Assembly (NCBI RefSeq): GCF_002532075.1 | Contig: NZ_LYXE01000134.1 | Span: 1-34,715 of the forward strand | Source: Candidatus Chloroploca asiatica | GTDB lineage: Bacteria > Chloroflexota > Chloroflexia > Chloroflexales > Chloroflexaceae | Length of the DNA stretch: 34,715 bases | Direction of reading: 5' to 3' | Part shown: piece by piece, positions 27,541 through 32,685 of the stretch | How the letters are laid out: each line of letters opens with the position of its first letter | How positions within the stretch are numbered: the first letter of the stretch is position 1 | Made by a program: the position numbers and the translations under genes | The notes under the pieces: generated by a model | Told to the model about the DNA's origin: nothing | The model's database searches: none | The model's input: only the letters and a program-made list of their open reading frames with translations

Positions 27541-28827
27541 ATGGGTACAAAAAATTCACGGCTCCAGGGATTTTATCAATTAAACCCGTTTGAGCGTTTG
27601 CAGATGGTCAAGTCCTTTGACGGCCTGTGCGAAGAAGATCTGCGGGTCTTGCATGGTGGTCATGGTACCCTGACGATCGAGCGTGCTGATAAAATGATCG
27701 AAAATGTGGTTGGCACCTACAACCTGCCGCTTGGCATCGCAACCAATTTTTTGATCAACGGGCGCGACCATTTGATCCCGATGGTTGTTGAGGAGCCGTC
27801 AATTGTTGCAGGCGCAAGCTACGCGGCCAGAATGGTACGCGAGGGCGGCGGGTTTGCCACCAATAGCACCGATCCCGTAATGATCGGGCAAATTCAGATT
27901 GTTGGCGTGGCGGCCCCACAGAGTGCGCGCCACGATATTTTTACCCGCAAAGAAGAGATCCTCGCGATCGCAAATGCCCAGAGCCGCTCGCTCGTTGGGC
28001 TTGGCGGCGGTGCCCTTGATCTCGAGGTCAACCTGCATGCAACGAGCCCGATGGGGCCAATGATGGTTGTTCACTTGCTGGTTGATACCCGCGATGCGAT
28101 GGGTGCCAACGCCATCAACTCGATGTGCGAGGCTGTCGCGCCGCTACTTGAGCAGATTACCGGTGGGCGCGTCTATCTGCGCATTCTGTCGAATCTCAGT
28201 GATCGGCGCCTCGCCCGCGCCCGCTGTGTTGTGCCGACCCGCGCCCTCGAACGCGATGGACTGAGTGGCGAAGAAGTGGCCGAGGGCATTATGTGGGCCT
28301 ATGCCTTTGCCGCCGTTGATCCCTATCGGGCTACCACCCACAACAAGGGCATCCTTAATGGGGTTGACCCGGTGATTGTCGCGACGGGCAATGATTGGCG
28401 GGCCATCGAGGCTGGCGCTCACGCATATGCGTCACGCAGCGGTCAGTACCGCTCGTTGAGTGTGTGGGAGCGCGATGACGAGGGCAATCTTGTTGGCACA
28501 CTCGAAATGCCGATGGCCGTTGGCATTGTCGGCGGTGCCACCAGGGTGCATCCCGCGGCCCAGACCGCACTCAAATTGCTTGGGGTGCAGTCAGCCAACG
28601 AACTGGCCGAGATCTGTGTCGCTGCGGGCCTCGCAAGCAACCTCGCCGCGATGCGTGCCCTCGCCTGCGAAGGGATCAACCGCGGCCACATGGGGCTCCA
28701 CGCGCGCCAGATTGCCATGGCCGCCGGTGCCCACGGCCCCCTCGTTGACGAGATCGTCCGCCGTATGGTCGAAGAACGCAATATCAAACCCGCGCGGGCG
28801 GAAGAGTTGATCGCTGAATTGCGGTAA
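27541..28827 (+). CDS. mvaA: Hydroxymethylglutaryl-CoA reductase, class II
   Basis: 428 residues, the size of class II (Pseudomonas mevalonii-type) enzymes. It reduces HMG-CoA to mevalonate (or, in some bacteria, runs the reverse). Catalytic Glu is in PMVVEEPSIVAGAS, Lys in TTHNKGILNGVDPV, Asp in GNDWRAIEAGAHAYA, and the C-terminal His in NRGHMGLHARQIA. ENVVGTYNLPLGIATNF is the class II substrate loop. This is the committed step toward isoprenoids by the mevalonate route. The gene runs ahead of HMG-CoA synthase on the same strand, 280 bases away. Whether NADH or NADPH is used cannot be seen. A GGAGG-rich stretch lies before the ATG. Confidence 0.95.
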   Translation: MGTKNSRLQGFYQLNPFERLQMVKSFDGLCEEDLRVLHGGHGTLTIERADKMIENVVGTYNLPLGIATNFLINGRDHLIPMVVEEPSIVAGASYAARMVREGGGFATNSTDPVMIGQIQIVGVAAPQSARHDIFTRKEEILAIANAQSRSLVGLGGGALDLEVNLHATSPMGPMMVVHLLVDTRDAMGANAINSMCEAVAPLLEQITGGRVYLRILSNLSDRRLARARCVVPTRALERDGLSGEEVAEGIMWAYAFAAVDPYRATTHNKGILNGVDPVIVATGNDWRAIEAGAHAYASRSGQYRSLSVWERDDEGNLVGTLEMPMAVGIVGGATRVHPAAQTALKLLGVQSANELAEICVAAGLASNLAAMRALACEGINRGHMGLHARQIAMAAGAHGPLVDEIVRRMVEERNIKPARAEELIAELR

Positions 28828-28863: not shown

Positions 28864-28917
28864 AGAACTCATCTGGACGCCAAATGTGTGAAGAATGGCT
28901 GTGCCAGAGGTGCATCA

Positions 28918-29107: not shown

Positions 29108-30157
29108 ATGATGAAACCAGAGCGCCCGGTTGGGCTGATTGGCTACGGGGCGTATGTTCCCCGCTATCGCATTGCTGCGCGTGAGATTGCCCGCATCTGG
29201 ACTGATGGGCAGGGTGGGGTGCCCGTGGATGCCAAGAGTGTGCCAGGGCCTGATGAAGATACCATTACGCTCTCGATCGAGGCCGCGCGCAATGCCCTGG
29301 CCCGTGCCGGGGTTGCGATCGAACAGGTGAGTGCGGTCTGGGTTGGCAGCGAGAGCCATCCGTATAGTGTGAAGCCTTCGGGCACGATCGTGGCCGAAGC
29401 CCTCGGGGCGACGCCATGGGTGAGCGCTGCCGACTTTGAGTTTGCCTGCAAAGCGGGCAGCGAGGCCCTCACCGCAGCGATGGCGCTGGTTGGCAGCGGG
29501 ATGGCCAATTATGCCATGGCAATCGGGGCCGATACCGCGCAGAGCCGCCCCAGCGATGCACTGGAATATACTGCTTCGGCAGGGGCTGGTGCGTTGCTGA
29601 TCGGGCCAGCCGCAGAGGCTGTGGCAACGATTGACGCAACCGTGAGCTATGTGAGCGATACGCCCGACTTCTTCCGGCGCGCCGATCGTCCCTATCCTGT
29701 TCATGGCAATCGCTTTACCGGCGAGCCGGCCTACTTTCATCAGATCCAATCGGCGGCCCAACGCTTGATGAGCGACATGGGTAAGACCGCCAAGGATTTC
29801 ACCTACGCGATCTTCCACCAGCCGAATGCCAAGTTCCCTCAGGCCGTTGCCAAGCGCCTGGGTTTCAGCGATAGTCAGATTGCGCCCGGTTTGCTCAGCC
29901 CACAGATCGGCAATACCTACTCGGGCGCGGCTATGGTCGGCCTGTGTGCAACACTTGACGTTGCCCAACCCGGCGAGACCATCTTTATCACGACCTACGG
30001 CAGCGGCGCTGGCTCTGATGCTTATGCGCTCACCGTCACCGAGCAGATCCTCGAGCGGCGTAACCGCGCCCCACTGACCGAGGCCTACCTCAAACGACAG
30101 GTCTTTATTGACTATGCGGTCTATGCGAAATGGATCGGCAAACTCGTCATGGGGTAA
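29108..30157 (+). CDS. mvaS: Hydroxymethylglutaryl-CoA synthase, archaeal type
   Basis: 349 residues, the length of archaeal HMG-CoA synthases. It joins acetoacetyl-CoA and acetyl-CoA to give HMG-CoA. The three active-site residues look intact: Glu in WVGSESHPYSVKPSG, the nucleophilic Cys in DFEFACKAGSEAL, and His in AIFHQPNAKFPQ. NTYSGAAMVGL and TYGSGAGSDAY are also typical. The ATG at 29108 has AGAAGGA seven bases upstream; the 71 extra codons in the open frame are repeat DNA. In archaea this enzyme works in a complex with a thiolase and a DUF35 protein, and both homologues follow here, though both are degenerate at key residues. Confidence 0.95.
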   Translation: MMKPERPVGLIGYGAYVPRYRIAAREIARIWTDGQGGVPVDAKSVPGPDEDTITLSIEAARNALARAGVAIEQVSAVWVGSESHPYSVKPSGTIVAEALGATPWVSAADFEFACKAGSEALTAAMALVGSGMANYAMAIGADTAQSRPSDALEYTASAGAGALLIGPAAEAVATIDATVSYVSDTPDFFRRADRPYPVHGNRFTGEPAYFHQIQSAAQRLMSDMGKTAKDFTYAIFHQPNAKFPQAVAKRLGFSDSQIAPGLLSPQIGNTYSGAAMVGLCATLDVAQPGETIFITTYGSGAGSDAYALTVTEQILERRNRAPLTEAYLKRQVFIDYAVYAKWIGKLVMG

Positions 30158-30319: not shown

Positions 30320-31483
30320 ATGCGATCATCATATATTGTGAGTGCTGCGGCAACTGCGGTTGGCGAGCATTATGCACGCAGTCTGAGCGATCTGGCGAGT
30401 GAGGCGGTACGTAGCGCGTTTGCCGCCCTACCCGAGGTAAGTCCCGAGCGAGTCGGGGCGCTTTTTGTCGCGAATGCCATGGGCGAGACCCTGGCAAGCC
30501 AGGGGCAACTGGGGGCGTATCTGGCGCATGCCGTCGGGCTGCGGGGGGTACCTGCGCTGCGTGTTGAGGCCGCCGGCGCGAGTGGCGGTGTTGCGTTGCA
30601 CCAGGCGGCGCAGGCCATTGCGACAGGGCAGTGCGACCTTGTTGTCGTGCTGGGAGCCGAGAAGGCGACCGATCGCCTCGAAGGGGCGCTCGAAACAGCG
30701 CTCGCCCTGCATACCGACGCCGAGGCCGAGGCCATCCACGGGTTGACGCTGACCTCGCAATGGGCGATGCTGATGCGTCGGTATATGCACGAATACAACT
30801 ATGGCCTCGAAGCCTTTGCGCCCTTCCCGGTCAATGCACACGCCAATGCAGCGAAAAATCCGCAGGCGCTCTACCGGTTTGCGATCAACGCCGACAAATA
30901 CCGCAAAGCTGGCATGGTCGCCTCGCCGCTGAATATGCTCGATTGCAGCAGTGTGGCTGATGGGGCCGCCTGTGTCATCCTCGCGGCTGAGTCACTTGCC
31001 CGCGAGTTCCCCGGGCCACTCGTCCGGCTGGCGGGCACAGCGATCGCCACTGATACGCCGTCGCTCGGCGCGCGCCGTAACCCGCTCGATCTTGAGGCAG
31101 CGCGGGCCAGTGCCCACGTTGCGCTTGGACGCGCCCATCTGGGCCTCAGCAGTGTGCAGGTCTTTGAATTGAGTGACCCCCACGGCATTGCTGCCGTGCT
31201 TGCGCTCGAATCAATCGGCTACTACGAACGCGGCGAGGCCCCGCGCCACGCCGCTGACGGGGCCATCGCGCCAACCGGGCGCACGCCACTTGCCACGGCA
31301 GGCGGCTACAAAGCCCGTGGCGACATCGTCGGGGCGAGTGGCGTCTACCAGGTCGTCGAACTGGTGCGCCAGTTGCGTGGCGAAGCAGGCCCCACCCAGG
31401 TCGCCGACGCCCGCGTTGGGTTGGCGCAAACGCTCGGTGGCATTGGGGCAACCGCAGCTACCGCCGTCATCGTCGCTGAGTAA
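30320..31483 (+). CDS. Archaeal-type acetoacetyl-CoA thiolase homologue lacking the catalytic residues
   Basis: 387 residues, full length and clearly of the archaeal/SCP2 thiolase group: MRRYMHEYNYGLEAF, LNMLDCSSVADGAACVIL and GASGVYQVVELVRQLRGEAG are near-diagnostic. Active thiolases have Cys in EAACASGG, His in EVHDxF and His in GHPxGATG. Here these read EAAGASGG (Gly86), ELSDPHG (Ser285) and RGDIVGASG (Asp335). All three are changed, yet the frame is intact, so this looks like a maintained pseudoenzyme and not a decaying gene. In archaea this subunit feeds acetoacetyl-CoA to HMG-CoA synthase through a DUF35 bridge. A structural or acyl-CoA-binding role is inferred here, with acetoacetyl-CoA made by another thiolase. 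AAGGAG precedes the ATG. Confidence 0.8.
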   Translation: MRSSYIVSAAATAVGEHYARSLSDLASEAVRSAFAALPEVSPERVGALFVANAMGETLASQGQLGAYLAHAVGLRGVPALRVEAAGASGGVALHQAAQAIATGQCDLVVVLGAEKATDRLEGALETALALHTDAEAEAIHGLTLTSQWAMLMRRYMHEYNYGLEAFAPFPVNAHANAAKNPQALYRFAINADKYRKAGMVASPLNMLDCSSVADGAACVILAAESLAREFPGPLVRLAGTAIATDTPSLGARRNPLDLEAARASAHVALGRAHLGLSSVQVFELSDPHGIAAVLALESIGYYERGEAPRHAADGAIAPTGRTPLATAGGYKARGDIVGASGVYQVVELVRQLRGEAGPTQVADARVGLAQTLGGIGATAATAVIVAE

Positions 31484-31486
31484 GGA

Positions 31487-31505
31487 TTTGCGCCTTGGCG
31501 TCAAG
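31487..31505 (-). repeat. Dispersed 'GACGCCAAGGCGCAAA' repeat, copy D
   Basis: A 19-base fragment of the same repeat family (TTTGCGCCTTGGCGTCAAG on the plus strand) four bases after the thiolase-homologue stop, here in the direction opposite to the gene. Confidence 0.45.
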
Positions 31506-31608
31506 CTGTACGTTTCGCCCTTCATGCACTACAATGAACCCAAGACCCTCACCCTGACAAGGGGCGGATCTTGCGCTACGTACCCGCGCTTTCTACAGGA
31601 GCCAGACC

Positions 31609-32262
31609 ATGATTCAGGAGATGATCAACGGCAGCGTCGGTGTGCTGAGTCGACCATCAGTGGCGACCTTCGAGGAATATGAGAAGGATAATCTGGGTTG
31701 GGCGCTGATCTACTCGGTGCTCGCCGGGGTGATCAATGCGATCATTAGTGGCATTCAGTTCGCTCTTTTTCCACCAACACCAGTCAATCCGCAAGATTTA
31801 GGTGATGTCCCCCCGGAATTGGCCGAGTTGCTCGGCGGTATGACGACGGGTGCAGCAGCAGCGCCTAATATCTGGGCCTCCGTGATCGGGGCAATCGTCT
31901 TTACGCCACTCATTCTGCTGATTGCCTGGGGCATTACCTTTGCGCTCGGGCGTGCGTTTGGCGGTGATGGCAAGTTTGGTGAACTGGCCTACAATATGTC
32001 GCTCTTTGGGGCACCCATTACGGTAATCGGGAGCGTGTTCGGCCTCATTCCATTTCTTGGTGGCATCGCTGCATTTGCGCTCTTTATCTACAATCTCTAC
32101 CTGACCTATCTCGCAATCCAGGCTGGGATGAACCTGCCAGGCAATAAGGCCCTGTACGTCATTCTAATCCAGTTTGCCATCGGGATCGCCATTGGCCTCT
32201 GCTTTTTCCTTTTCTTTGCCCTCATGATCGCAGCCCTGATCGGCGCGGCTGGTGGGGTCTAG
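31609..32262 (+). CDS. Yip1-domain membrane protein
   Basis: 217 residues with about five hydrophobic helices (near 30-52, 86-112, 122-145, 148-168, 178-210). The pattern of a short N-terminal amphipathic segment (EMINGSVGVLSRPSVATFEEY), then PLILLIAWGITFALGRAFGGDG and ELAYNMSLFGAPI, fits Yip1-like proteins, common but poorly known in bacteria. AGGAG lies seven bases ahead of the ATG. It separates the thiolase homologue from DUF35, which is unusual for that gene set. Its role is unknown; tying the mevalonate proteins to the membrane would be speculation. Confidence 0.75.
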   Translation: MIQEMINGSVGVLSRPSVATFEEYEKDNLGWALIYSVLAGVINAIISGIQFALFPPTPVNPQDLGDVPPELAELLGGMTTGAAAAPNIWASVIGAIVFTPLILLIAWGITFALGRAFGGDGKFGELAYNMSLFGAPITVIGSVFGLIPFLGGIAAFALFIYNLYLTYLAIQAGMNLPGNKALYVILIQFAIGIAIGLCFFLFFALMIAALIGAAGGV

Positions 32263-32289
32263 TTTTTTTACGAGGAGTTATCGATCAAT

Positions 32290-32685
32290 ATGGAAATTGC
32301 TCGTCACTGGCGCCAACGCGCCGCACGCTATCGGTTGCAAGGTCAACGCCATCGTGAAACTGGTGAGGTACGCTTTCCCGCTCAGCCCCCTGCCATCGGC
32401 GAAGATCCGACGGCGTGGGAAGCCGTTGATCTCAGTGGACGCGGCGAACTCTATAGTTTTAGTGTGCTGCGGCAGGGGCCTGATGGCTATGAGGGTCTTG
32501 TCCCTTACCCAGTCGGGATGGTACGCCTTGAAGAAGGCCCGCTCGTCGCGGCCCAGTTGACCGATTGCGCCGAGGCCGATCTTGCAATTGGTCAGCCTGT
32601 TGAGATGGTGACCCGTCAGTTGCTCGATACCGGCGAAGATAATGTGCTCGTCTATGGGTACAAGTTTCGCCCGGTGCTTGTGTAA
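32290..32685 (+). CDS. DUF35 OB-fold protein lacking its zinc ribbon
   Basis: 131 residues. It has the DUF35 layout: an N-terminal helix and RYRLQG, then a ribbon region, then an OB fold ([23 protein letters not shown], and the terminal VYGYKFRP). In the family the ribbon reads C-x2-CG...FPPR...C-x2-C; here it is [20 protein letters not shown]. All four Cys are gone, and the only Cys in the protein is in LTDCAEAD. The archaeal homologue bridges thiolase and HMG-CoA synthase and helps pass acetoacetyl-CoA between them. The OB fold that makes contacts seems kept, so a scaffolding role is likely. A GAGGAG lies 12 bases upstream, somewhat far. rlmN follows after five bases. Confidence 0.8.

What the first reader, a model, noticed from the sequence alone, without database searches (positions are those of the whole stretch)
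30320..32685. HMG-CoA synthase operon with a catalytically dead thiolase and a ribbon-less DUF35
Seen: the thiolase homologue has Gly86, Ser285 and Asp335 where Cys, His and His are expected, and the DUF35 protein has lost all four ribbon Cys. The HMG-CoA synthase upstream keeps its Glu, Cys and His. Known: in archaea the three proteins form a complex that passes acetoacetyl-CoA from thiolase to synthase. Inference: both partners changed together and both frames are intact, so the complex may persist as a scaffold or regulator while a separate thiolase supplies acetoacetyl-CoA. It would be a new variant of this complex.
Basis: partly seen in the sequence, partly recalled or inferred. Interest (0 to 1): 0.78.

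Follow-up and report, generated by a model that had tools for sequence, protein, structure and literature searches.

The report
Dead thiolase kept beside HMG-CoA synthase
Many bacteria of the phylum Chloroflexota keep a thiolase that has lost its catalytic residues next to an enzyme of isoprenoid synthesis, which suggests the protein now serves as a structural part of that enzyme.

Summary
In this Ca. Chloroploca-related genome the thiolase homologue has Gly86, Ser285 and Asp335 for Cys, His and His; the DUF35 protein has none of the four zinc cysteines; the HMG-CoA synthase keeps Glu82, Cys114 and His237. None of 68 full-length orthologues from 67 of 82 genomes of the order has the nucleophilic Cys, and median dN/dS is 0.06-0.13: maintained proteins, not errors or decay. 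Elsewhere in the phylum, 37 of 52 comparable loci also have a Cys-less thiolase beside an intact synthase, but 35 of those 37 genomes keep a four-Cys DUF35. So the changes were stepwise: the thiolase died first (one large clade, SH-aLRT 94, plus one separate case), the zinc site later. The predicted fold matches the thiolase of the solved archaeal complex (6esq_A, Z 62.4, 1.2 A). An ordinary thiolase is found in 64 of 65 Cys-less genomes and 9 of 15 live ones. Best explanation: a pseudoenzyme subunit that holds the complex and completes the synthase's shared CoA site, while a free thiolase supplies acetoacetyl-CoA; the mirror image of PhlACB, whose synthase-like subunit is dead. That the complex still forms was not testable here.

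The parts
27541..28827 (+). HMG-CoA reductase, first gene of the mevalonate cluster
   Evidence: TIGR00532 436.5 bits, cut-off 259.95; upstream on the same strand in 51 of 51 loci of the order where HMGR, HMGCS, thiolase and DUF35 were all in the piece
29108..30157 (+). archaeal-type HMG-CoA synthase, catalytic Glu82 (29351), Cys114 (29447), His237 (29816) intact; the ORF opens at 28895 but family homology starts near Met72
   Evidence: TIGR00748 495.5 bits, cut-off 353.35; 6esq_I E=9e-122; residues
30320..31483 (+). pseudothiolase (SCP2-thiolase-like, type of the archaeal thiolase/HMGCS complex) without catalytic residues
   Evidence: Pfam Thiolase_N and Thiolase_C_1; closest solved folds 7yvy and 6esq_A; below the acetyltransferase equivalog cut-off (NF053570 283.6 of 600)
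30575..30577 (+). Gly86 at the position of the nucleophilic Cys
31172..31183 (+). Ser285-Asp-Pro-His288 in place of His-Asp-Ala/Cys-Phe; His288 in 68 of 68 of the order
31322..31324 (+). Asp335 at the position of the GHP-motif His
31609..32262 (+). Yip1-family membrane protein between thiolase and DUF35 in part of the window's family; probably not a core part
   Evidence: PF04893 57.8 bits; found by tblastn in 26 of 70 pieces of the order, between the two genes in 23 of 26
32290..32685 (+). DUF35 protein, OB fold kept, zinc site lost
   Evidence: PF01796 80.8 bits; 6esq_E E=1.8e-23; model vs 6esq_G TM 0.79
32329..32406 (+). former zinc-ribbon segment ([26 protein letters not shown]), no Cys

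Best explanation
The thiolase homologue is an ancient pseudoenzyme subunit of an archaeal-type thiolase/HMG-CoA synthase/DUF35 complex. Shown here: the three catalytic positions (86, 285, 335), and position 371 which is Asn in all live relatives read, are changed, while fold, frame and gene neighbourhood are kept under purifying selection. Inferred: it still binds DUF35 and HMG-CoA synthase and provides its share of the three-subunit CoA site that the synthase was built around, so the synthase cannot do without it. Acetoacetyl-CoA then comes from an ordinary free thiolase through solvent rather than by channelling. The zinc ribbon of DUF35, which in a related complex shapes the thiolase-side cleft, became dispensable once that cleft stopped working, and was lost in Chloroflexales.
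For: 0 of 68 orthologues of the order has Cys86; the 67 fetched ones cover at least 375 of 387 residues and none of the 68 has a stop. 37 of 52 comparable loci outside the class are Cys-less, with Glu/Cys/His intact in 37 of 37 synthases. Median dN/dS is 0.06-0.13 in seven genera or groups of the order, 0.099 and 0.043 (one pair) in two Cys-less families outside it, and 0.088 and 0.061 (one pair) in two live ones. The Cys-less proteins form one clade of 76 rows (SH-aLRT 94, just under the star mark; trait columns left out), with one further case in G089; a single origin for all is rejected, p-AU 0.004. HMGCS-thiolase-DUF35 order on one strand in 66 of 66 pieces of the order that hold all three. 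The model (pLDDT 96.1) matches 6esq_A with Z 62.4, rmsd 1.2 A over 384 residues, first of 1000 chains aligned. PF02803 at E 1e-20 or better in 64 of 65 Cys-less and 9 of 15 live genomes (Fisher p 1e-4). In 6ESQ, CoA is bound by residues of all three subunits (PMC6392133, passages), and the zinc finger shapes the partner's cleft in Sal-Shy (PMC12329534, passages).
Against: No interaction, complex or activity was measured. Interface and CoA-site residues could not be mapped, because no coordinates were available. The ordinary-thiolase association is not significant by families (3 of 7 live against 1 of 11 dead families have a member that lacks it, p 0.25). On the HMGCS tree the dead/live label needs 4 changes, at least 3 forced by starred branches; one clade is not rejected there (p-AU 0.298) but not shown. 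Outside the class DUF35 is often not beside the thiolase (16 of 37 pieces hold it) and 3 of those 16 have a thiolase over 1 kb from HMGCS. Chloroflexales carry newly fixed residues (His288, Trp148), which could mean a new activity rather than mere scaffolding. One Cys-less genome, G071, shows no ordinary thiolase (a 92% complete draft; 9 of 11 of its genus have a match). L114 (G125) has a ribbon-free DUF35-like protein beside a Cys-bearing thiolase, though without HMGCS, so ribbon loss is not tied to thiolase death in every DUF35 pair.
Confidence: 0.72

Rival explanations
1. The protein has a new catalytic activity in the thiolase fold (for example a retro-aldol, hydrolytic or acyl-transfer step), as Ltp2 and Sal steroid aldolases do.
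For: Thiolase-fold partners of DUF35 without the usual thiolase machinery can be active enzymes (PMC12329534, passages). Chloroflexales have an invariant His288, Asp335 in 64 of 68 and Ser/Thr285 in 64 of 68.
Against: The aldolase motif YDHF or YDCY is absent (Ser/Thr-Asp-Pro-His). Outside Chloroflexales the same positions drift (86: G, D, E, Q; 335: F, N, H, D, Y), so no catalytic set is shared by the Cys-less clade. Position 285 is S, T, C or H and 335 D or N even in Chloroflexales.
Confidence: 0.12
2. A ligand-sensing regulator: the old active site binds acetyl-CoA, acetoacetyl-CoA or CoA without turnover and modulates HMG-CoA synthase.
For: The motifs round the old site are conserved in a new form in Chloroflexales, and thiolase and synthase share a CoA site in the archaeal complex (PMC12329534, passages).
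Against: No direct evidence; drift of positions 86 and 335 in the rest of the clade argues against a conserved pocket there.
Confidence: 0.12
3. The gene is decaying or neutral, or the changes are sequencing errors.
For: Loss of the catalytic residues.
Against: The Cys is missing in 67 separate genomes of the order, no stops, dN/dS 0.06-0.13.
Confidence: 0.01

Closest known systems
Archaeal acetoacetyl-CoA thiolase/DUF35/HMG-CoA synthase complex (PDB 6ESQ, 6ET9, Methanothermococcus thermolithotrophicus)
   Same: All three proteins are homologous by sequence, thiolase and DUF35 also by predicted fold; same three genes together
   Different: Thiolase Cys/His/His and the DUF35 zinc cysteines are gone, so thiolase-to-synthase channelling cannot start from this subunit by the known mechanism
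PhlACB (PDB 5M3K) Friedel-Crafts acylase
   Same: Same three-part architecture with one condensing-enzyme subunit that lacks its key residues: PhlA has Gly115 for Cys and Cys83 for Glu (PMC6392133, passages)
   Different: Mirror image: there the synthase-like subunit lacks the residues and the thiolase-like one is active; here the synthase is intact and the thiolase is not
Ltp2-ChsH2 and Sal-Shy steroid aldolases (PDB 6OK1, 9MYR)
   Same: Thiolase-fold protein without thiolase chemistry, bound to a DUF35 domain
   Different: Their YDHF/YDCY catalytic motif is absent here; the gene lies in a mevalonate cluster
Live complex thiolases of other Chloroflexota (L181, L185, L188, L191, L193-L195, L204-L211)
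   Same: Nearest live relatives read, with the same synthase and DUF35 neighbours
   Different: Cys86, His285, His335, Asn371 in 15 of 15, and four ribbon Cys in 15 of 15

Membership tests
archaeal thiolase/DUF35/HMG-CoA synthase complex | archaeal-type HMG-CoA synthase with Glu/Cys/His | tested here: met
   TIGR00748 495.5 bits over cut-off; residues intact
archaeal thiolase/DUF35/HMG-CoA synthase complex | SCP2-like thiolase subunit of matching fold | tested here: met
   6esq_A Z 62.4, 1.2 A over 384 residues
archaeal thiolase/DUF35/HMG-CoA synthase complex | catalytic Cys, His and His in the thiolase | tested here: not met
   Gly86, Ser285, Asp335
archaeal thiolase/DUF35/HMG-CoA synthase complex | DUF35 subunit with OB fold | tested here: met
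   PF01796 80.8 bits, cut-off 27.1; 6esq_G TM 0.79
archaeal thiolase/DUF35/HMG-CoA synthase complex | four-Cys zinc ribbon in DUF35 | tested here: not met
   0 of 4 zinc Cys
archaeal thiolase/DUF35/HMG-CoA synthase complex | three proteins bind each other and share a CoA site | not testable with these tools
   no multimer prediction or coordinates; gene order kept in 66 of 66 pieces is only indirect
acetyl-CoA C-acetyltransferase (acetoacetyl-CoA thiolase) | equivalog score and catalytic residues | tested here: not met
   NF053570 283.6 of 600 bits; residues missing
Ltp2/Sal thiolase-fold aldolases | YDHF or YDCY motif | tested here: not met
   positions 285-288 read SDPH; motif taken from PMC12329534
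PhlACB acylase | synthase-like subunit without key residues beside an active thiolase-like subunit | tested here: not met
   states are reversed (PMC6392133)

The most novel reading that the evidence does not exclude
In Chloroflexales the former thiolase active site was rebuilt (Ser/Thr285, His288, Asp335, with Trp148, Tyr185 and Phe187 fixed) into a new acyl-CoA-handling or sensing site that controls or feeds HMG-CoA synthase, after an older phase as a pure scaffold that still persists elsewhere in the phylum.
Probability: 0.13. Interest if true: 0.82.

Novelty: new variant of a known kind. Interest (0 to 1): 0.66.

Why it matters
Substrate channelling is the described benefit of this complex. 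Here is a natural experiment in which channelling from this subunit should have stopped, yet the subunit has been kept across a large part of a phylum. That separates the structural from the catalytic role of the thiolase and gives graded evolutionary stages: live with zinc; dead with zinc; dead without zinc. It also bears on annotation, because these genes score against thiolase domain models but lack the residues of an acetoacetyl-CoA thiolase.

Tried and rejected
Sequencing error and decay: rejected. Simultaneous loss of thiolase residues and zinc Cys: rejected for the phylum; both are lost in Chloroflexales and, separately, in G089 (L111: Glu86, Ala335, but His285 kept; 0 of 4 zinc Cys). 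Zinc loss only with a dead thiolase: true of the HMGCS sets read, not of all DUF35 pairs, since L114 has a ribbon-free DUF35-like protein beside a Cys-bearing thiolase without HMGCS. Single origin of all Cys-less forms: rejected on the thiolase tree (p-AU 0.004), not rejected on the HMGCS tree (p-AU 0.298; a second test there, without L111, did not finish). Aldolase motif: absent. A Ser/Thr-His-Asp triad: not strict.

Literature: in the listings of searches (titles and abstract starts, mostly the first 10 or 20 of more) I saw no paper on a Cys-less thiolase in Chloroflexota HMG-CoA synthase clusters; only open-access text is covered. The PNAS paper on 6ESQ, the Ltp2 paper and the 2024 paper on the Promineifilum mevalonate pathway are not held, so they are unseen here and might discuss it; statements on 6ESQ come from passages of PMC6392133 and PMC12329534. 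Interface mapping and pocket distances could not be done, as no coordinates are given out.

Rows dropped: L100, L109 and L110 (fragments) were left out of the 68. The 68 come from 67 of the 82 genomes of the order (G003 gives two). Of the other 15, eight gave no match or a weak partial one (G039, G041, G049, G054, G055, G058, G061, G080) and seven only fragments or the paralogue (G001, G018, G020, G025, G028, G063, G072); several weaker matches outside the order were not fetched. Of 61 HMGCS places outside the order, 60 were fetched (not G343). L212, L214, L216, L217 and L219 (divergent sets, Cys present) and L213, L215 and L218 (no thiolase in the piece) were left out of the 52. In one search, 80 of the 99 genomes were used: ten of the order, G035 and eight with weak synthase matches were left out. 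The tree used 37 of the 68 rows of the order.

Full report
What was claimed.

Observation. It holds at the stated codons: Gly86 at 30575, Ser285 at 31172 and Asp335 at 31322 align with Cys, His and His of 6esq_A and 7yvy_A. The DUF35 protein aligns with 6esq_E over nearly its whole length but has none of the four zinc Cys. The synthase, from about 29108, keeps Glu82, Cys114 and His237. The genes run HMG-CoA reductase, HMG-CoA synthase, thiolase homologue, Yip1 protein, DUF35, RlmN. The closest named records are two Candidatus Chloroploca genomes, 96% identical in this protein; NCBI places that genus in the order Chloroflexales.

Setting. The genome (listed as 100% complete) has no DXR match (9 of 14 control genomes ring) and has a mevalonate kinase (TIGR00549 224.9 bits over cut-off), so it probably depends on the mevalonate route. 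It has three ordinary thiolase loci (PF02803). The two read in full carry intact Cys, NEAF, GHP and CxGG motifs (motif names recalled), and one scores 450.5 bits against TIGR01930, cut-off 240.55. Roseiflexus castenholzii, also of the Chloroflexi, has an alternative mevalonate branch (PMC3857490, passages), and a review notes archaeal-type mevalonate genes in some Chloroflexota (PMC13001223, passages).

Chloroflexales. In the class search 101 of 158 genomes matched. I read 68 full-length orthologues, the window included, from 67 of the 82 genomes of the order. Cys86 is absent in 68 of 68 (66 Gly, 1 Thr, 1 gap). Position 285 is Thr 39, Ser 25, Cys 2, His 2. Position 335 is Asp 64, Asn 4. His288 is invariant where live relatives have Phe, and Trp148 is invariant where live relatives have Asn. 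None has a stop, and the 67 fetched cover at least 375 of 387 residues. DUF35 has 0 of 4 zinc Cys in 70 of 70 rows. The synthase residues are intact in every row that has them: 68 of 70 for Glu and Cys, the other two cut by contig ends, and 70 of 70 for His, the reference and L111 included. HMGCS, thiolase and DUF35 lie in that order on one strand in 66 of 66 pieces that hold all three.

Rest of the phylum. An archaeal-type synthase is present in 99 of 400 genomes drawn from the phylum. Of 60 further loci read, 52 have a comparable set: 15 have a live thiolase (Cys, His, His, Asn371 in 15 of 15) and 37 are Cys-less (25 Gly, 8 Asp, 3 Glu, 1 Gln). Of the 37, His285 is kept in 28, His335 in 3 and Asn371 in 8. 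All 52 synthases keep Glu, Cys and His. Live sets have four ribbon Cys in 15 of 15. Cys-less sets have them in 15 of 16 with a local DUF35, the exception being L189 (G369), whose DUF35 is also split across frames. For the other 21 and G369, a whole-genome search found a DUF35 in 21 of 22 genomes (none in G497); 20 show four Cys, and the other is the L189 gene again. In total 35 of 37 Cys-less genomes keep a four-Cys DUF35. So Cys loss is wider than zinc loss, and among HMGCS sets zinc loss is seen only with a dead thiolase: Chloroflexales, G089 (L111) and G369 (L189). One pair without HMGCS does not follow this: L114 has a Cys-bearing thiolase beside a ribbon-free DUF35-like protein.

Ancestry. 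With the trait columns left out, the thiolase tree of 102 rows puts the Cys-less proteins in one clade of 76 rows (SH-aLRT 94), the 37 Chloroflexales rows in one clade (100), and L111 outside. The 76 include two long-branched paralogues without HMGCS neighbours (L106, L108). One clade for all Cys-less rows is rejected, p-AU 0.004; L111 is a long branch, so its place is less sure. The HMGCS tree is less clear: 4 changes, one clade not rejected.

Selection. Median dN/dS (Nei-Gojobori pairs) of the pseudothiolase is 0.061 to 0.131 in seven groups of the order (0.069 in the window's genus), 0.099 and 0.043 (one pair) in two Cys-less families outside it, and 0.088 and 0.061 (one pair) in two live groups. 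This is the pattern of a working protein. DUF35 in the order lies at 0.052 to 0.206.

Structure. The thiolase model has pLDDT 96.1. Foldseek ranks 7yvy first by E-value, with 6esq_A fifth; by structural Z 6esq_A is first: Z 62.4, 1.2 A, 384 residues. The DUF35 model has pLDDT 85.7, with the N-terminal 12 residues mostly below 50, and matches the same complex, TM 0.79, rmsd 3.4, 37% identity. A 2019 paper states that all DUF35 structures known then bind zinc (PMC6996347, passages), so a zinc-free member would be new to that list.

Supply of acetoacetyl-CoA. Of 80 genomes with the synthase, an ordinary thiolase (PF02803, E 1e-20 or better) is found in 64 of 65 Cys-less and 9 of 15 live ones, Fisher p 1e-4. 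By families, 3 of 7 live against 1 of 11 dead families have a member that lacks it, p 0.25, so relatedness may carry part of it. The lone Cys-less exception is a draft genome; 9 of the 11 genomes of its genus have a match, some of them weak extra ones.

Mechanism. In 6ESQ, CoA is bound by residues of all three proteins (PMC6392133, passages), and thiolase and synthase share the site so that acetoacetyl-CoA is not released (PMC12329534, passages). A synthase that evolved to complete its CoA site with thiolase and DUF35 residues would need them as structure even after the thiolase stopped working. In Sal-Shy the DUF35 zinc finger shapes the thiolase-side cleft; once that cleft is idle, the zinc has less to do. 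Both steps are inference. PhlACB is a solved precedent with the roles reversed.

Verdict. A real, old and widespread variant of a known complex, with the likely order of changes now visible.

Noticed in passing
L106 229-1356, L107 439-1566, L108 7402-8529: A second thiolase-like paralogue in some genomes of the window's family has Thr at the nucleophile position (VEAATATGA) but keeps the HDAF and GHP motifs; no HMG-CoA synthase in the fetched pieces. It falls in the Cys-less clade on a long branch.
   Followed up: partly
L007 (G000:C181 near 50370): A MutS-like reading frame appears to carry an intein-like insert; recognised by eye, not tested.
   Followed up: no
window 31609-32262: A Yip1-family membrane protein sits between thiolase and DUF35 in 23 of the 26 loci where it was found, all in the window's family; its link to the complex is unknown.
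   Followed up: partly
window 31430-31432: Position 371, Asn in live relatives, is Cys in 50 of 68 Chloroflexales pseudothiolases, recalling the CxG Cys of ordinary thiolases, but Thr in the window.
   Followed up: no
L189 7450-7950: The DUF35 gene of G369 lacks ribbon Cys, and its N-terminal helix and OB part lie in different frames.
   Followed up: partly
L114 7308-7520: A short ribbon-free DUF35-like protein (OB part only) lies directly after a Cys-bearing thiolase in G125, with no HMG-CoA synthase in the piece.
   Followed up: partly
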